From NCBI GenBank assembly GCA_902794115.1, contig CADBGD010000004.1:1-37498 (forward strand): a stretch of DNA of 37,498 bases, read 5' to 3'. Position numbers and translations under genes: made by a program. The notes beneath the pieces were generated by a model. The model was not told where the DNA came from and searched no databases. It saw nothing but the letters and a program-made list of their open reading frames with translations. Origin of the DNA: Oscillospiraceae bacterium. Its GTDB lineage: Bacteria; Bacillota; Clostridia; Saccharofermentanales; Saccharofermentanaceae. This document shows positions 48 through 11,493 of the stretch, piece by piece. Positions within the stretch are counted from its first letter, which is position 1; each line of letters starts with the position of its first letter.

Positions 48-3000
48 ATGGCATTACAACTTACAAAAAAGACCATGGACGGTAACGAAGCTGCTGCGTA
101 TACCTCGTATGCATTTACTGAGAACGCTGCAATTTACCCGATCACACCGTCCTCGCCTATGGCTGATCACACTGACCAATGGGCACAGCAGGGCAGAAAG
201 AATATCTTCGGACAGACGGTAAACATCGTCGAGATGGAGTCTGAGGGAGGTGCTTCCGGTGCTGTTCACGGCTCTCTGGCAACAGGTGCTCTGACAACAA
301 CCTATACCGCATCCCAGGGTCTTCTCCTGATGATCCCGAACATGTACAAGATCGCAGGTGAACTTCTCCCTTGCGTATTCCACGTTTCCGCTCGTGCTCT
401 GGCAGCTCATGCGCTGAACATTTTCGGTGACCACGCAGACGTTTATGCCTGCCGTCAGACCGGTTTCGCGATGCTCTGCTCCAACTCCGTTCAGGAAGTA
501 GCTGACCTGGCTGCTGTAGCTCACCTGGCTACCATCAAGACCAGAGTTCCGTTCATCCACTTCTTCGATGGTTTCCGCACATCTCACGAAATCCAGAAGA
601 TCGAGGTTATCGATTACGATACACTGGGCACCCTGGTTGACTACGATGCCATCAAGGAATTCCGTAAGAGATCCCTTTCTCCTAACCACCCGACACTTCG
701 TGGTACCGCTCAGAACCCGGATATCTACTTCCAGGGCAGAGAGGCTTCCAACCCGTTCTATCTGGCAGTTCCGGATCAGGTTCAGGCTTACATGGATAAG
801 ATCAATGAGATCCGTGGCACTAACTACAAGCTCTTCAACTACTATGGTGCTGAGGACGCTGACCGCGTAATCATCGCTATGGGTTCTGTCTGTGAGACAG
901 CTGAAGAAGTTATCGATTTCCTCAACGCTCACGGTGAGAAGGTTGGTCTTGTTAAGGTTCACCTCTATCGTCCGTTCTCTGCTGAGAAGCTCCTCGAGGC
1001 TATCCCGTCCACAACAAAGGCGATCGCAGTTCTCGACAGAACAAAGGAGCCGGGTTCTTACGCAGAGCCGCTGTTCCTCGACGTAGCTGCTGCTTACGTT
1101 GGCAAGAACGCTCCGAAGCTCATCGGCGGCCGTTACGGTATGGGTTCTAAGGATACAACTCCGGAGACCATCCTGGCTGTTTATAAGGAACTCAAGAAGG
1201 ATCAGCCGAAGGAAAGATTCACCATCGGTATCGATGATGACGTTACCTTCCTCTCTCTGGATTGCTCCGAGTCTATCGAAGTTGCCGGCGAGGGCACAGT
1301 TCAGGCTAGATTCTGGGGTCTCGGCGCTGACGGTACTGTTGGTGCGAACAAGAACTCCATCAAGATCATCGGTGACCACACAGACATGTATGCTCAGGCT
1401 TACTTCTCTTACGACTCTAAGAAGTCCGGTGGTATCACGATCTCTGACCTGAGATTCGGTACAACTCCGATCCGTTCCACATACCTCATCAACAAGGCTG
1501 ACTTCGTAGCTTGCCACAACCAGTCTTATGTTTATGAGTATGATATGCTCTCTTCCCTGAAGCCGGGCGGCACGTTCCTCCTCAATACTCAGTGGACAAG
1601 AGAAGAGCTCGAGGAGAGACTCCCGGGTTCCATGAAGAGATATATCGCGAACAACAACATCAAGTTCTATACTCTTGACGCTGTTGCTAAGGCTAAGGAG
1701 ATCGGCCTCGGCGGAAGAATCAACACCATCTGCCAGTCCGCATTCTTTAAGCTTTCCGGTATCCTTCCGGTAGAGCAGGCAGTTGACTACATGAAGAAGG
1801 CTGCTCTGAAGTCCTACGGTAAGAAGGGTGACGATATCGTTCAAATGAACTATGCTGCTATCGACGCTGGTGTGGATGCAGTAGTTGCTGTTGACGTTCC
1901 GGATTCCTGGAAGACAGCTGAGGACAAGCCGGTCGAGAAGAAGGCTGTTCCTGAGTTCATCGAGAAGGTCGTTAACGTAATGAACAGACAGGAAGGTAAC
2001 AAGCTTCCGGTATCTACCTTCAAGGGTATGGAAGATGGTACTTTCCCGCAGGGTACAGCTGCTTACGAGAAGCGCGGTACTGCTGTTGATATTCCGGTTT
2101 GGGATGCTTCTAAGTGTATCCAGTGTAACCAGTGCTCCATCGTATGTCCGCACGCTGCTATCCGTCCGTTCCTCCTTACTGAGGAAGAGGCTGCCAAGGC
2201 TCCGTTCGAGACCAAGGATGGCATGAAGGGTTACGAGCAGTACAAGTTCCGCATTCAGGTTTCCGCTATGGACTGCCTCTCCTGCGGTATCTGCGTAGAG
2301 TCCTGTATCGCGAAGGAAAAGGCAATCACCATGGTTCCGCTCAAGGACAACCTCAAGGAAGCCGAGAACTGGGATTACTGTGTTGCTCTGTCGCATAAGG
2401 ACAACCCGATGAATAAGGCCAGCATCAAGGGTTCTCAGTTCGAGCAGCCGCTCCTCGAGTTCTCCGGTGCTTGCGCAGGCTGTGGTGAGACACCTTACGT
2501 TAAGCTCCTGACCCAGCTCTTCGGTGACAGAATGCAGATCTCCAATGCTACAGGATGCTCCTCTATCTGGGGTGGTTCCGCTCCGTCTATGCCGTACACA
2601 ACCAACTACAGAGGTTTCGGTCCGGCTTGGGGTAACTCCCTCTTCGAGGATAACGCTGAGCATGGTCTGGGTATGTTCCTTGGTTACAAGCAGCTCAGAA
2701 ACAGAGCTAAGGATCTCGTTGAAGAGACTGTAGCTTCTACCTCTTCTGAGGATCTGAAGGCAGCTGCTCAGGCTTGGATCGACGGTTTCAACTCCGGTGA
2801 TCAGGCTCGTGAGAATGCTGAGAAGCTGGCTGACGCTCTGAAGGCTGAAGGTTCCGATTCCGCTAAGAAGGCTCTCGAGTATGAAGACTTCTTCATGAAG
2901 AGATCCCAGTGGATCATCGGTGGTGACGGATGGGCTTACGATATTGGTTACGGCGGACTTGATCACGTTCTTGCTTCCGGTGAGGATGTTAACGTTCTCG

Positions 3001-3554
3001 TACTCGATACTGAGGTTTACTCCAACACCGGTGGACAGGCTTCCAAGTCCACACCTCATTCTGCTGTTGCCCAGTTCGCTGCTGGCGGTAAGGCAATCAA
3101 GAAGAAGGACCTCGGCATGATGGCTATGAGCTATGGTTATGTATATGTTGCTCAGGTTTCCATGGGCGCAGATAAGAACCAGCTGATCAAGGCCTTCACA
3201 GAGGCTGAAGCTTACCATGGTCCGTCCATCGTAATCTGCTACGCTCCGTGTATCAACCACGGTATCAAGGGTGGCCTGAAGGTTGCTCAGATCAAGGAGA
3301 AGCAGGCTGTTGAGTGCGGTTACTGGCACCTGTTCAGATTCAACCCGACTCTGACAGCTGAGGGCAAGAATGCATTCACTCTCGACTCCAAGGAGCCGAC
3401 AGGTGACTTCATCGCCTTCCTCAAGAGCGAAGTTCGTTACAACTCCCTCTACAAGAAGTATCCGGAAGACGTCGTTGACGGTATGTTCGAAAAGACACAC
3501 CAGGATGCGATCGAGCGTTACGGTTCTTATGTAAAGAAGGCTAACGAAGCTTAA
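48..3554 (+). CDS. nifJ: Pyruvate:ferredoxin (flavodoxin) oxidoreductase
   Basis: This 1168-residue protein oxidatively decarboxylates pyruvate to acetyl-CoA and CO2 and passes electrons to ferredoxin in the cytoplasm. The full single-chain domain order is visible: an N-terminal pyruvate-binding transketolase-like domain (starting near YAFTENAAIYPITPSSPMA), the gamma-type domain with the FWGLGADGTVGANK segment, a two-cluster ferredoxin domain (CIQCNQCSIVCP and CLSCGICVESC), and a C-terminal TPP domain with CAGCGETPY, GGDGWAYDIGYGG and DTEVYSNTGGQ. Length is normal for the family. The ATG follows a strong AAAGGAG 6-7 bases upstream; a TATAGT at 15-20 could be a -10 box, but its -35 is outside the window. 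Codon use is strongly biased (AAG, CTC, GGT, TCC), as expected of a very highly expressed gene. It ends at its own terminator and is apparently monocistronic. Identification is secure. Confidence 0.98.
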   Translation: MALQLTKKTMDGNEAAAYTSYAFTENAAIYPITPSSPMADHTDQWAQQGRKNIFGQTVNIVEMESEGGASGAVHGSLATGALTTTYTASQGLLLMIPNMYKIAGELLPCVFHVSARALAAHALNIFGDHADVYACRQTGFAMLCSNSVQEVADLAAVAHLATIKTRVPFIHFFDGFRTSHEIQKIEVIDYDTLGTLVDYDAIKEFRKRSLSPNHPTLRGTAQNPDIYFQGREASNPFYLAVPDQVQAYMDKINEIRGTNYKLFNYYGAEDADRVIIAMGSVCETAEEVIDFLNAHGEKVGLVKVHLYRPFSAEKLLEAIPSTTKAIAVLDRTKEPGSYAEPLFLDVAAAYVGKNAPKLIGGRYGMGSKDTTPETILAVYKELKKDQPKERFTIGIDDDVTFLSLDCSESIEVAGEGTVQARFWGLGADGTVGANKNSIKIIGDHTDMYAQAYFSYDSKKSGGITISDLRFGTTPIRSTYLINKADFVACHNQSYVYEYDMLSSLKPGGTFLLNTQWTREELEERLPGSMKRYIANNNIKFYTLDAVAKAKEIGLGGRINTICQSAFFKLSGILPVEQAVDYMKKAALKSYGKKGDDIVQMNYAAIDAGVDAVVAVDVPDSWKTAEDKPVEKKAVPEFIEKVVNVMNRQEGNKLPVSTFKGMEDGTFPQGTAAYEKRGTAVDIPVWDASKCIQCNQCSIVCPHAAIRPFLLTEEEAAKAPFETKDGMKGYEQYKFRIQVSAMDCLSCGICVESCIAKEKAITMVPLKDNLKEAENWDYCVALSHKDNPMNKASIKGSQFEQPLLEFSGACAGCGETPYVKLLTQLFGDRMQISNATGCSSIWGGSAPSMPYTTNYRGFGPAWGNSLFEDNAEHGLGMFLGYKQLRNRAKDLVEETVASTSSEDLKAAAQAWIDGFNSGDQARENAEKLADALKAEGSDSAKKALEYEDFFMKRSQWIIGGDGWAYDIGYGGLDHVLASGEDVNVLVLDTEVYSNTGGQASKSTPHSAVAQFAAGGKAIKKKDLGMMAMSYGYVYVAQVSMGADKNQLIKAFTEAEAYHGPSIVICYAPCINHGIKGGLKVAQIKEKQAVECGYWHLFRFNPTLTAEGKNAFTLDSKEPTGDFIAFLKSEVRYNSLYKKYPEDVVDGMFEKTHQDAIERYGSYVKKANEA

Positions 3555-7688: not shown

Positions 7689-7708
7689 GGAAGATCCTTT
7701 TTATTTTA
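7673..7708 (+). terminator. Terminator of the dnaD-dnaC-acpS-SH3 operon
   Basis: A perfect 10-bp stem AAGGATCTTC / GAAGATCCTT with a 7-base loop is followed by TTTATTTT. The stop codon of the SH3 protein lies in the loop, so the 5' arm is coding. It also lies between this operon and the convergent reverse transcriptase gene. Confidence 0.9.
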
Positions 7709-8926
7709 GGCAAGTGCATTTTCCGTGCGGGAAAGATAGTATTCGTGACGAAGGCTTCGGAAACCCATCTCCTTGATCTGGTCATAGGTGACCGCGTAAT
7801 TTCCTTTATAGTGGCGGCCGGAGTAGAGATACCGGATATATTCGATCAGATACGAGTCCAGCTCCCGAAGGGTCTTATCCGTGGTGATCACCGGGAAGAA
7901 CCACCGGCTCCAGGTGAAAAGATCTTCCCGCAGCTCGTTGTAGAATTTCCGGTTGAAGGTGCGGATCAGAGCCCTGGCTGCCCGCTCGTAGCCGGCATCT
8001 TTTTGCGTCTTCCAGCGAAGAAGAGCGCGGGCTTTTCTCCGGATCTTTCCCTTCAGTTTTTCTTTCGTGACGGAGGAAATATCCACCTGATGATCCTGAT
8101 AGGAAAAACCCAGAAACTCCCAGGGTTCACCGGGTGTGGAAATGTGCATCTTTGAAGGGTTCAGAACAAGTCCCTTTTCTTCGATCCGGGAGGTAAAAAG
8201 ACGGATGGCATCTTCCAGTTCCTCACGGCTTTCGGCGAAGATCAGAATGTCATCCGAATACCGGAAATAGGAGATCCCTTTTTCTTCGAACTCCCGGTCA
8301 ACGGAAAGAAGATAGACATTGGCAAAAAACGGCGAGACCGGTGTGCCGGCCATGGCGCCGCGGGATTCCGGGATGACGGAACCGTCCGAAAGACGGCTTT
8401 TTCCGGCAAGAAGGAGACATCGGAAGAACCAGAGAAGATCCGGATCGTCATGGATCAGTTCCTCCAAAACGGAAAGGAGTTTTTCTTCCGGAATGGAATT
8501 AAAGTAATTCGAAATGTCCGCTTTGAAGCAGAAAAGAGAATCCTTGTTTTTCTGGGCAAGAATGTCGAAGATGGCATTTCGGGCAGAATGGGATCTCCGG
8601 AAGGAATAGCAGCGGTCGGAAAGAAGAGGGTCGTAGTGATAAAGCTGGAAAGAAAGTCCCTTTAAAAAGAGATTCTCTTCTTCGGAAAAAGTATAGACCG
8701 TGCGCTTTTTCGTGGTGCCGCTTTTATTAATCGTGCGGCGGAGCGGCAGGTCCAGACAGTAATCCCGCTGAGAAAGACGTGTGGCTATGGGAATGTACCG
8801 TTCTTCCTCGATAAAGGAACTCAGCTGCTCTTTTTCTTTCCTGCTCATATACTGATGGGTGAGCTTATATTCCAGAAATTCATCCCATGTTTTCCGCAAA
8901 AGCAGGTTTTCAAAAATCGAAGTCAC
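7706..8926 (-). CDS. Stand-alone reverse transcriptase
   Basis: An RNA-directed DNA polymerase of about 406 residues. All core RT blocks are present: a fingers region (RRTINKSGTTKKRTVYTF), motif A FKADISNYFNSI with the first catalytic Asp, motif B GAMAGTPVSPFFANVYL, motif C FRYSDDILIF with the catalytic YSDD, and the motif D/E region ending in PWEFLGFSYQ. A helical, basic C-terminal part of about 120 residues follows. There is no integrase, HNH or obvious maturase fusion, and no group II intron ends are seen. Motif B lacks the PQG seen in most group II and retron enzymes, and no VTG retron motif is seen, so it fits an unclassified or defence-like (UG/DRT) group better. The start is uncertain: the frame stays open to a TTG at 9034 but that stretch is a hairpin array; GTG at 8926 is adopted, with only a distant AAAGGA. 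It lies downstream of the GNAT-AKR gene on the same strand. Confidence 0.88.
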   Translation of the reverse strand: MTSIFENLLLRKTWDEFLEYKLTHQYMSRKEKEQLSSFIEEERYIPIATRLSQRDYCLDLPLRRTINKSGTTKKRTVYTFSEEENLFLKGLSFQLYHYDPLLSDRCYSFRRSHSARNAIFDILAQKNKDSLFCFKADISNYFNSIPEEKLLSVLEELIHDDPDLLWFFRCLLLAGKSRLSDGSVIPESRGAMAGTPVSPFFANVYLLSVDREFEEKGISYFRYSDDILIFAESREELEDAIRLFTSRIEEKGLVLNPSKMHISTPGEPWEFLGFSYQDHQVDISSVTKEKLKGKIRRKARALLRWKTQKDAGYERAARALIRTFNRKFYNELREDLFTWSRWFFPVITTDKTLRELDSYLIEYIRYLYSGRHYKGNYAVTYDQIKEMGFRSLRHEYYLSRTENALA

Positions 8927-8959
8927 TGGAAGCGGGCCCGGTCCTTTCTTTTCGAACAA

Positions 8960-9090
8960 TAAAAAAGAAGAGAAACAGCTTTGAAACAAGCATGCTTGTT
9001 TTACCGGATCTGTACCCGCGCCGGTTGTCTGCAAAACCGGTCACGATGCTCGTGATCCCGAAAGGGCACGGGCTTGGTCCACCGCAGACG
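8960..9090 (-). ncRNA. Candidate structured RNA 5' of the reverse transcriptase
   Basis: Read on the minus strand, four hairpins follow each other: CCCG...CGGG (9072-9057), TCACGA-GCA-TCGTGA (9055-9041), CCGGTT with an 8-base loop and AACCGG (9040-9021), and the perfect 18-base palindrome AAACAAGCATGCTTGTTT (9001-8984). Additional long-range pairing of GGATC (9058-9054) with GATCC (9010-9006) is possible. A pyrimidine-rich tract ending in six T follows at about 8979-8961. The 268-base gap between the GNAT-AKR stop and the RT is long for this compact genome. RTs of retrons and of the DRT2 and DRT9 defence types use an RNA encoded just upstream, so a template or cofactor RNA is a reasonable inference. 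No known RNA family was recognised; the ends are approximate. Confidence 0.5.
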
Positions 9091-9194
9091 CGAATAAACG
9101 CATTTCTCTTCTTGAATCGAGAATACCATAAAACCAGGCAGAAAACCACATCATTTCACTCTGCGGGAAGCGGGGGATCGGTGATACGAAAAAC

Positions 9195-10568
9195 CTAGTC
9201 TCTTGTGGCCCAATCCGGGAATTCTTTCGAGAAGAAGATCTGCGGCAGAACGGACAGGAAATGCATGTCTTCCTCGTTAATGGTAAAGCCGAAAATATCC
9301 TTATTTTCCTTCATGCGCTCTTCATGGGAACTCTTCGGGATGATCTGGATCCCGGATTGGTTGAGGAAACGAAGGAGTAACTGGGCGACGCTGACACCAT
9401 ACTGTCCGGCCATCTTTTCCAGGTAGGGTTCCTTCGAAAAATACATTCTTCCCAAGGGGCTCCAGGCCTGGGGAACGATTCCGCGGGCGCGGCAGAAGTC
9501 AACAGTATACTGCTGAAGGTAACCGACATGCAGCTCCAGCTGATCCACCATCGGCACCACTTCGCAGTCATCCAGGATCACCTGAAGGTGATGCGGCTGG
9601 AAGTTGCAGACACCGATCGCACGGCACTTTCCTTCTTTATACAGTTCTTCCATGGCGCGCCAGGTATCCCGGATCTTTTGTCTCCACTGAAGGTCCTGCG
9701 GATTTCTCTTCGGCCAGTGGATCAGATACAGGTCGATATAGTCGGTGCGAAGTTTCCGGCAGGATCTGGCAAAGGCCTCTTTCGTCTCCTCGTAGCCCAT
9801 TTCCGTCGGCCACATTTTGGTGGCCAGAAAGATCTCGTTTCTCGGGAGCCCGCACTCGGCCAGGGCCTCGCCGATGCATTCCTCATTGTTGTAGAAAGAG
9901 GCGGTGTCGATGTAACGGTAGCCCAGTTCCAGCGCCTTCAGGATCGGTGCTTTTCCTTCCTGTAAAGTCGACCGGTAAGAGCCGTAGCCGACTGGCGGGA
10001 TCTGGATCCCATTATTCAAGGTGAAGCTTTCCGGCGTTCCCGGGGTGCGAAGCCGGTACATGCTGACGGTTCTTTCCGCCCCGTCTTCCAGCATATGATC
10101 CAGGGCATCGCGCTCATAGACGAAACCGCACTTCTTCATGACGTTTCCGGAGGCCTTGTTTCTCACATCATGCCGGCCACGGAACTGGGTCTGGTGAAGT
10201 GTATTTCTTCCAAAGTCGAGCATGGCACGGGCGGCCTCGGTGGCCAGGCCTTTGCCCCACTGAGCCCTGGCAAAATTGTAGCCGATCTCAAACATGCCGT
10301 CTTCCTCATCATAGTACATTCCGCCGGAGCCGATCAGCTCGCCGCTTTCCTTCAAAACGAAGCCCCAGTCAAAATCCGTATCGCTATTCTCGTTGGCAAC
10401 TACGGACTTCAGCCACTCTTTCGTGGTCTCCACACTCTTGTGCGCATAGTAGCGCATATATCTGGCCACTTCCGGGTCGGAGGCCCAGGAATCAAATGCC
10501 GTCTGTGCATCGTCCAGGGTCAGGGGACGCAGTATCAGTCGTTCTGTGGTAAGGATCGGGTTTTTCAT
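9195..10568 (-). CDS. GNAT acetyltransferase-aldo/keto reductase fusion
   Basis: A 457-residue two-domain protein. Residues 1-175 form a GNAT N-acetyltransferase of the ribosomal-protein-alanine acetyltransferase (RimJ/RimL) type: TERLILRPLTLDDA at the start, the acetyl-CoA loop RAQWGKGLATEA (101-112) and NVMKKCGF near the end. Residues about 180-457 form a complete aldo/keto reductase with the tetrad Asp221 (DTASFY), Tyr226, Lys251 (ATKMWP) and His284 (IHWP), plus the NADPH-binding IPKSSHEERMKEN region. The ATG at 10568 is chosen because GGAGG lies 7 bases upstream and MKNPILTTERL is the normal GNAT start; the open frame further upstream crosses promoter sequence. There is no stop or start signal between the domains, so this is one polypeptide. 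Substrates are unknown. Confidence 0.9.
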   Translation of the reverse strand: MKNPILTTERLILRPLTLDDAQTAFDSWASDPEVARYMRYYAHKSVETTKEWLKSVVANENSDTDFDWGFVLKESGELIGSGGMYYDEEDGMFEIGYNFARAQWGKGLATEAARAMLDFGRNTLHQTQFRGRHDVRNKASGNVMKKCGFVYERDALDHMLEDGAERTVSMYRLRTPGTPESFTLNNGIQIPPVGYGSYRSTLQEGKAPILKALELGYRYIDTASFYNNEECIGEALAECGLPRNEIFLATKMWPTEMGYEETKEAFARSCRKLRTDYIDLYLIHWPKRNPQDLQWRQKIRDTWRAMEELYKEGKCRAIGVCNFQPHHLQVILDDCEVVPMVDQLELHVGYLQQYTVDFCRARGIVPQAWSPLGRMYFSKEPYLEKMAGQYGVSVAQLLLRFLNQSGIQIIPKSSHEERMKENKDIFGFTINEEDMHFLSVLPQIFFSKEFPDWATRD

Positions 10569-10604
10569 AAGTGGCCTCCGGATGAATATAATCAATATGT
10601 TTCC

Positions 10605-10633
10605 ATTATACACATTTCCCGGGAAACTCAGAA
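10605..10633 (-). promoter_or_regulatory. Likely promoter of the GNAT-AKR gene
   Basis: On the minus strand a perfect TATAAT (-10) is at 10610-10605, about 36 bases before the GNAT-AKR start. The -35 region near 10633-10628 (TTCTGA) is a weak match. It faces away from the promoter at 10643-10651. Confidence 0.5.
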
Positions 10634-10642
10634 AGTGCCGAA

Positions 10643-10651
10643 TGGTATAAT
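10643..10651 (+). promoter_or_regulatory. Extended -10 promoter of the TraX-family gene
   Basis: TGGTATAAT is an exact extended -10 element (TGnTATAAT), which can work without a good -35 box; none is seen. Transcription would begin near 10658, about 70 bases before the chosen TraX start. Confidence 0.55.
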
Positions 10652-10728
10652 GATTTCTGCGGGAAATGCACTGTTCCTTTTCATTCGAGAAAGGGACAGG
10701 GAAGAAGCAGGAGCTGATAATAAGAGAT

Positions 10729-11493
10729 ATGCCGGTCTTTTTACTGAAGATAATCGCTGCCGTCACGATGCTGATCGACCATGTGGGATATGGCTTTTTC
10801 CCGGAAGAAGTCATCTTCCGTTCCATTGGCCGTGTGGCATTTCCTCTTTATGCTTTTTTACTGGCGGAAGGGTACTATCACATTAAGGACGATCCGGAAA
10901 AAGAAAAGAGGCACTTTCGGCGGATCGTGCTTCTGACTGTGGTATCGGAAGTCATTTACGATCTTTTCATGACCGGAAAAGTGTGGGATCCCCAAAGTCA
11001 AAGTGTTATGCCCACGCTCCTTCTTGGCATGATGGGCCTGATGGTCGCAAAAAGATATGAGAAGAAGCCGGTGATCGTGTATGGTTTTTCTATACTGACC
11101 ATGGGAGTCGCCCATTTTCTCCACCCGAATTACGGTCTGATGGGTGTACTGATGATCTACTTTTTCTACTGGTACACAAGTAGCTTCAGAAAGACGCCCT
11201 TTCTTCAGAAATATATCATCCTTCTGGGTTTCTCTGCTGTCTGGGTTTTGGGCTTTAACTGGTTCCGCTTTGGTTTTCCCGATGCAGATACACTTGTGAA
11301 AAAATCTCTGGATGCCTGGCAGTGGATGGCGCCGTTTCCGGTGATCGATATCCTGATCGCGTCGTATAAAGGGGAGAACGGGTATAAGAACCGCGTCCTC
11401 AATACCCTCTATGCCTGGTTTTATCCCGCCCATTTACTGGTTCTGGCGATCCTTGAACTTTGTATGGGAATCGTGCATTTCAAGTGGCTCTGA
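10729..11493 (+). CDS. TraX-family membrane protein
   Basis: This 254-residue polytopic membrane protein matches the TraX family, whose founding member N-acetylates F pilin. Visible features are the N-terminal AAVTMLIDHVGYGFF, the following FRSIGRVAFPLYAFLLAEGY signature, a HFRRI segment and about seven further hydrophobic helices. Chromosomal TraX proteins of Clostridia stand alone, as here, and their substrate is unknown; there is no conjugation gene nearby. The ATG at 10729 begins the family-like MPVFLLKIIAAVTM sequence, but the nearest AGGAG is about 16 bases upstream. An earlier in-frame ATG at 10666 is the alternative; it would add 21 non-conserved residues. Confidence 0.85.
   Translation: MPVFLLKIIAAVTMLIDHVGYGFFPEEVIFRSIGRVAFPLYAFLLAEGYYHIKDDPEKEKRHFRRIVLLTVVSEVIYDLFMTGKVWDPQSQSVMPTLLLGMMGLMVAKRYEKKPVIVYGFSILTMGVAHFLHPNYGLMGVLMIYFFYWYTSSFRKTPFLQKYIILLGFSAVWVLGFNWFRFGFPDADTLVKKSLDAWQWMAPFPVIDILIASYKGENGYKNRVLNTLYAWFYPAHLLVLAILELCMGIVHFKWL

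What the first reader, a model, noticed from the sequence alone, without database searches (positions are those of the whole stretch)
7706..9194. Stand-alone reverse transcriptase with a row of hairpins in its leader
A complete RT (FKADISNYF, GTPVSPFFANVYL, YSDD) sits with no intron, integrase, retron effector or transposase. The 268-base gap upstream on the same strand holds four consecutive hairpins, including the perfect 18-base palindrome AAACAAGCATGCTTGTTT. Retron RTs and DRT2 or DRT9 defence RTs work on an RNA encoded just upstream; this pair could be a new RT-RNA system. Motif B lacks the PQG of most group II enzymes and no retron VTG is seen. The frame stays open through the hairpins to a TTG, but that looks like chance.
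Basis: partly seen in the sequence, partly recalled or inferred. Interest (0 to 1): 0.75.

Follow-up and report, generated by a model that had tools for sequence, protein, structure and literature searches.

The report
UG26 reverse transcriptase with RT-5 RNA
This bacterial reverse transcriptase always travels with one small folded RNA that it most likely copies, perhaps into repeats much as telomerase does, and in the window's own genus the pair is a permanent resident of the chromosome rather than a come-and-go defence gene.

Summary
The gene is a complete 404-aa RT starting at GTG 8920, not TTG 9034. It belongs to PADLOC class RT_UG26 (510 bits; next class 119). The leader encodes one 151-nt RNA (8963-9113, -) matching Rfam RT-5, not four independent hairpins. 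Both parts were catalogued, but I found no paper linking them or describing a function. RT-5 occurs in all 79 UG26-carrying genomes of the family and in 1 of 36 without UG26; at class level the same 15 of 391 genomes carry both. In 24 genomes the RNA lies 1.2-9.5 kb from the RT, with its own promoter, so it acts in trans. Covariation supports a closing stem, a central stem and a pseudoknot (99.2% paired). A direct repeat, TGTTTC-AAAGC-TGTTTC, lies where DRT10 RNAs keep their telomerase-like A-B-A' template; its statistics are only moderate. A nearly invariant C-terminal Tyr could prime synthesis. A degenerate nuclease-like protein tracks UG26 elsewhere but is absent here. In the window's genus all 23 genomes have the pair, at one locus in all 22 examined (dN/dS about 0.06), unlike a mobile defence system. 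Product and biological role are inferred.

The parts
7706..8920 (-). UG26 reverse transcriptase, 404 aa, GTG start at 8920; YSDD catalytic motif; nearly invariant C-terminal Tyr395 as candidate priming residue
   Evidence: PADLOC PDLC03764 9e-154, 510 bits; Pfam RVT_1; start by alignment with 45 homologues, Y395 at 90% or more; AlphaFold model pLDDT 93
8963..9113 (-). RT-5 ncRNA, extended to 151 nt beyond the Rfam boundaries (Rfam match 8972-9093)
   Evidence: Rfam RF03026 64.7 bits; alignment of 21 RNAs of the genus
9103..9113 (-). P1 closing stem, 5' strand AAGAAGAGAAA
   Evidence: pairs perfectly with 8965-8975; other lineages carry a different but complementary P1; 8 of 9 pairs with changes on both sides
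8965..8975 (-). P1 closing stem, 3' strand TTTCTCTTCTT, followed by a U run
9083..9089 (-). Pseudoknot 5' strand (GUCUGCG, RNA nt 25-31)
   Evidence: 99.2% of cells paired, 6 of 7 pairs with changes on both sides; two of its pairs rank 2nd and 3rd of all column pairs
9027..9033 (-). Pseudoknot 3' strand in the apical loop of P5 (UGCAGAC, RNA nt 81-87)
9006..9080 (-). Central stem P3 (9066-9073 with 9014-9021, basal extension 9076-9080 with 9006-9010), variable hairpin P4 (9039-9058) and hairpin P5 (9035-9038 with 9023-9026)
   Evidence: P3 91.8% and P5 94.2% paired with compensatory changes; basal extension 65%; P4 by inspection of A1
8984..9001 (-). Hairpin P6, the palindrome AAACAAGCATGCTTGTTT; proposed template boundary element
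   Evidence: equivalent hairpin of different sequence in other lineages
8972..8988 (-). Candidate A-B-A' template: A TGTTTC (8983-8988), B AAAGC (8978-8982), A' TGTTTC (8972-8977); predicted product (GCTTTGAAACA)n
   Evidence: direct repeat in the same place in other lineages; swap tests 0/2000 and 0/4000, letter shuffles 21/2000 and 33/4000
9120..9125 (-). Possible extended -10 (TGg-TATTCT) of the RNA promoter
   Evidence: position only; 27 of 27 RNAs that lie apart from their RT have TATAAT in the same place

Best explanation
The locus encodes a two-part ribonucleoprotein: a UG26 reverse transcriptase and its dedicated trans-acting RNA, RT-5. The RNA folds into a closed P1 stem carrying a central P3 stem with a P5 loop-5' strand pseudoknot and a terminal P6 hairpin. 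I infer that the RT binds this scaffold, primes on its own C-terminal Tyr395, copies the short segment between P6 and P1' (A-B = UGUUUCAAAGC), melts, re-anneals at the identical A' segment and repeats, giving single-stranded tandem-repeat DNA (GCTTTGAAACA)n, as DRT10 and telomerase do. Shown here: family membership, RNA structure, obligate pairing, action in trans, purifying selection, syntenic inheritance within the genus. Inferred: priming, template, product, and a role in phage immunity (or another stable cellular role).
For: UG26 membership. RT-5 match. RT-5 in 79/79 UG26 genomes of the family and 1/36 others, that one on a contig ending 7.2 kb downstream; same 15/391 genomes at class level. 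RNA 1.2-9.5 kb from the RT on the same strand in 24 genomes, with TATAAT before 27/27 such RNAs. Covariation of all six helices, pseudoknot 99.2%. A-A' identity above swap nulls, at 83-93% of RNA length, much as in Eco3DRT10 (about 78-87% of 137 nt, positions from PMC12632851). Nearly invariant Y395; DRT10 primes from a C-terminal Ser or Tyr (PMC12632851). RT model resembles DRT9 at Z 23.6 over 377 residues, although group II RT scores higher at Z 30. dN/dS about 0.06.
Against: The template segment is AU-rich and repeats of 3 nt arise by chance: letter shuffles give p about 0.01, and the number of lineages with A of 4 nt or more is not significant (11 against 8.4 expected). A partly overlaps P6 and A' partly overlaps P1', so some identity comes from pairing constraints. 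Another conserved direct repeat (GUAC...GUA) lies before P6. No assay exists. Fixed, syntenic presence in the genus is unusual for a defence system, and the DRT10 SLATT partner is missing.
Confidence: 0.55

Rival explanations
1. Same RNP, but the template is a different segment or mode, for example the GUAC-N6-GUA repeat before P6, a DRT9-like homopolymer, or a DRT2-like long template that assembles a gene.
For: A conserved GUAC...GUA direct repeat gives the strongest repeat signal along the RNA (z 6.3).
Against: That motif is sequence-conserved without covarying arms and partly lies in P3. DRT9-like: longest internal U run is 3-4 in nearly all RNAs. DRT2-like: RNA lengths vary by all residues mod 3 within the genus and only 5 of 84 RNAs leave any frame open in a concatemer.
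Confidence: 0.25
2. Same RNP, but its main role is not antiphage defence: a domesticated RT doing a stable regulatory, repair or DNA-marking job in these genera.
For: All 23 genomes of the genus carry both parts, at one locus next to dnaB-dnaI-acpS in all 22 examined; dN/dS about 0.06; no close UG26 in the phage or plasmid collections; no defence genes among the ten other window proteins scanned with PADLOC.
Against: All characterised UG enzymes act in phage defence (PMC12632851). UG26 is sporadic outside the family (8 of about 370 class genomes by strong match), and a nuclease-like partner tracks it in half of the genomes.
Confidence: 0.25
3. The RNA is a cis-regulatory leader or attenuator of the RT mRNA.
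For: In the window it lies 42 nt before the start codon and ends in a U run.
Against: In 24 genomes it sits 1.2-9.5 kb away with unrelated genes, some on the opposite strand, in between, and it has its own promoter.
Confidence: 0.03
4. Remnant of a group II intron or a retron.
For: General RT similarity; best structural match is a group II intron RT (Z 30).
Against: 118 bits against a cut-off of 300 for the group II RT model and 63.6 against 235 for the retron St85 model; no intron RNA in the window; UG26 model 510 bits.
Confidence: 0.02

Closest known systems
PADLOC RT_UG26 (class of the UG/Abi reverse transcriptases)
   Same: Full-length match, 510 bits
   Different: The model is only a sequence class; I found no published product, RNA or activity for UG26 in the library searched
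Rfam RT-5 RNA (RF03026)
   Same: Window RNA matches over all 104 positions, 64.7 bits
   Different: The full RNA is longer (151 nt): a 5'-3' closing stem and a pseudoknot not in the Rfam model's structure line; partner and role not given there
DRT10 (UG17 RT + SLATT + tandem-repeat ncRNA, PMC12632851)
   Same: Separate ncRNA with a large closing stem, a stem-loop directly 5' of a candidate A-B-A' template, conserved C-terminal Tyr, about 400-450 aa RT
   Different: UG26 not UG17 (510 against 98 bits); no SLATT found; the RNA can lie up to 9.5 kb away; pseudoknot; template sequence fixed within a genus
DRT9 (UG28) and DRT2 (UG2)
   Same: ncRNA-bound UG RTs; DRT9 structure aligns over 377 residues, Z 23.6
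   Different: No poly-U template and no gene-length template
Telomerase (TERT + TR)
   Same: Proposed alignment and template segments with a stem-loop as boundary; weak sequence match of the UG26 profile to TERT (1.2e-6)
   Different: No DNA-end substrate; no genomic array of the predicted repeat in the window's genome

Membership tests
UG26 RT class | Full-length match to the class HMM well above other classes | tested here: met
   510 bits against 119 for UG27
Rfam RT-5 | Score above the gathering threshold over the full model | tested here: met
   64.7 against 45.7 bits, 1-104/104
DRT10 | UG17 reverse transcriptase | tested here: not met
   UG17 model 98 bits, UG26 510
DRT10 | Adjacent SLATT protein | tested here: not met
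   no SLATT among the Pfam matches of the neighbouring window genes
DRT10 | A-B-A' template repeat directly after a stable stem-loop | tested here: inconclusive
   6-nt A/A' in the window; swap test 0/4000, shuffle 33/4000, A>=4 count not significant
DRT10 | Protein priming from a C-terminal Ser or Tyr | tested here: inconclusive
   Y395 nearly invariant; no biochemistry
DRT10 | Tandem-repeat cDNA and phage defence | not testable with these tools
   needs sequencing and phage assays
DRT9 | Universally conserved poly-U template | tested here: not met
   longest internal U run 3-4 nt in nearly all RNAs
DRT2 | Repeat unit divisible by three with an endless open frame | tested here: not met
   lengths vary mod 3; 5 of 84 RNAs with an open frame, tested over the whole RNA
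Group II intron RT | Curated model cut-off and flanking intron RNA | tested here: not met
   118 against 300 bits; no intron RNA
Retron | Retron RT family match above cut-off | tested here: not met
   retron St85 model 63.6 against 235 bits; other retron types were not modelled separately
Retron | msr-msd with priming guanosine | not tested
   no search for an msr-msd was made

The most novel reading that the evidence does not exclude
UG26-RT-5 is a telomerase-like tandem-repeat DNA synthesiser that has become a fixed, vertically inherited core component of a bacterial genus, with a single invariant repeat product (GCTTTGAAACA)n, doing something other than, or beyond, episodic phage defence.
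Probability: 0.2. Interest if true: 0.85.

Novelty: new variant of a known kind. Interest (0 to 1): 0.6.

Why it matters
It gives an orphan Rfam RNA an obligate partner and a testable mechanism, and gives an uncharacterised UG class its RNA, with boundaries, structure and a predicted product. If the product prediction holds, telomerase-like repeat addition extends beyond DRT10 to a second UG class. The strict core-genome inheritance in one genus makes the question of whether all UG RTs are defence enzymes directly testable. The RNA's independence from RT adjacency also shows that searches limited to RT-flanking DNA would miss RNAs of this kind.

Tried and rejected
Reading the leader by folding energy alone: uninformative (z -1.64). 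TTG start at 9034: rejected by homologues. Cis-regulatory leader: rejected by separated RNAs. Group II or retron origin: rejected. DRT9-like and DRT2-like templates: rejected. Genomic array of the predicted repeat (a telomere-like product in the chromosome): none in the assembly with up to 3 mismatches. First hairpin-finding script over-extended P6, so its repeat statistics were discarded and redone with strict stems. Associated protein c3 as an active nuclease: fold resembles PD-(D/E)XK domains only at Z 5-6.4 and the catalytic residues seem absent by eye. Literature: Mestre 2022 and Weinberg 2017 were not held, so priority of the UG26 to RT-5 link could not be checked; searches for UG26 with RT terms gave nothing relevant. 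TERT did not appear among the 50 structural rows shown, which says nothing either way.

Full report
OBSERVATION. The minus strand of 7706-8920 encodes an intact 404-aa RT. Homologues from the same genus begin with ATG where the window has GTG 8920, so the frame up to TTG 9034 is chance. The protein is PADLOC RT_UG26 (510 bits; UG27 119, UG17 98, Drt9 97). Group II and retron St85 models score far below their cut-offs. The only Rfam match in the window is RT-5 at 8972-9093, minus strand, 64.7 bits.

THE RNA. Alignment of 21 RNAs of the genus extends the RNA to 8963-9113, 151 nt. Its first and last 11 nt (before the U run) pair perfectly (P1). In other lineages P1 has a different sequence but stays complementary. 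On 52 RNAs from many genera, six helices are supported: 81.4% of cells paired against 68.3% in shuffles, 279 cells with changes on both sides against 101, none of 500 shuffles as high, and a sharp drop when partners are slid by one to three columns. The alignment mixes P1 and P6 registers between lineages, so their 70% and 67% are probably underestimates. The pseudoknot between the P5 loop (nt 81-87) and the 5' strand (nt 25-31) is 99.2% paired, with changes on both sides at 6 of 7 pairs; two of its pairs rank second and third in a search over all column pairs that did not use the structure.

PARTNERSHIP IN TRANS. In the family, 84 of 115 genomes match UG26, five of them only weakly, leaving 79 strong. 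All 79 have RT-5; one of the other 36 does, and its contig ends 7.2 kb after the RNA, within the range of distances seen elsewhere. In 391 class genomes the 15 with strong UG26 are the 15 with RT-5. A weaker UG26-like RT (G235, 284 bits) has no RT-5. In 24 genomes of the sister genus the RNA lies 1.2 to 9.5 kb upstream of the RT on the same strand, and in four on another contig, with unrelated genes between. All 27 such RNAs in hand have TATAAT 4-12 nt before P1, and 23 a -35 of at least 4/6. So the RNA is a free-standing gene product, not a leader.

INHERITANCE. In the window's genus all 23 genomes carry both parts. The 21 other loci examined, and the window itself, have the pair beside the same acpS/SH3/dnaI/dnaB genes, apart from a few contig ends and one locus without an acpS match. 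dN/dS of the RT is mostly 0.04-0.08 among close relatives, up to 0.16. No close UG26 relative exists in 50,697 phage and 72,556 plasmid records; matches are general RT similarity of at most 28% in the rows shown. Outside the family UG26 is sporadic.

A THIRD PROTEIN. A 150-200 aa protein (c3 in the clustering) lies just upstream of the RNA in many genomes. Its profile hits 41 of 115 family genomes, 40 of them UG26-positive, and it also occurs beside UG26 in four loci of other families. It has a weak PADLOC RTasCOG2852 match (E 7e-4) and a C-terminal domain resembling PD-(D/E)XK nucleases (Z 5-6.4) with catalytic residues apparently lost. It is absent from the window's genome.

MECHANISM. DRT10 RNAs (UG17) carry a repeat A-B-A' directly after a stable stem-loop and, by the published positions, before the 3' strand of the closing stem; the RT primes on a C-terminal Ser or Tyr and adds tandem repeats (PMC12632851). 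In the window the segment between P6 and P1' reads TGTTTC-AAAGC-TGTTTC. Other lineages have different repeats in the same place: GATTT-AAT-GATTT, CTGTT-AAATT-CTGTT, GTTTT-AAA-GTTTT, GGATT-TAAT-GGATT. Keeping each A side and swapping downstream segments between RNAs never reached the observed repeat length (0/2000 on 38 unique tails, 0/4000 on 22 lineages), while letter shuffles reached it in 21/2000 and 33/4000. The count of lineages with A of 4 nt or more is not significant. I therefore call the template supported but not established. Tyr395 is nearly invariant. The RT model (pLDDT 93) is closest to group II intron RTs (Z 30) and aligns with DRT9 over 377 residues (Z 23.6).

NOVELTY. Both components were catalogued. 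The obligate link, the closing stem, the pseudoknot, action in trans, the candidate template and core-genome inheritance I did not find described in the library, but two key papers are not held there. The description of RT-5 as an RNA found near RT genes, and of UG26 as a class defined by Mestre and colleagues, is from my own knowledge.

Noticed in passing
L069, L071-L073, L076, L093, L099, L115, L117, L119-L121, L123, L124: In 14 sister-genus loci a 794-aa HD-domain protein (apparently membrane-spanning N-terminus) ends directly at the aligned RT start, which suggests one operon with UG26.
   Followed up: partly
RNA upstream of P6, e.g. L127, and window about 9003-9017: A second conserved direct repeat, GUAC-N6-GUA (GGUA-CAGAUCC-GGUA in the window), gives the strongest repeat signal along the RNA; its meaning is unknown.
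   Followed up: partly
G235:C95:8243-9364: A more distant UG26-like RT (284 bits) without an RT-5 match; it may have a diverged RNA.
   Followed up: no
window 9195-10826: A single 543-aa frame joins a GNAT acetyltransferase and an aldo/keto reductase, an unusual fusion or two genes read as one.
   Followed up: no
L108, L112: In two genomes UG26 with RT-5 sits within or beside a row of B12-binding radical-SAM-like genes (identified by eye).
   Followed up: no
window 54-3500: A 1148-aa open frame runs antisense to almost the whole pyruvate:ferredoxin oxidoreductase gene; probably codon-bias chance.
   Followed up: no
L068:164-224: Rfam pemK RNA match (47.9 bits).
   Followed up: no
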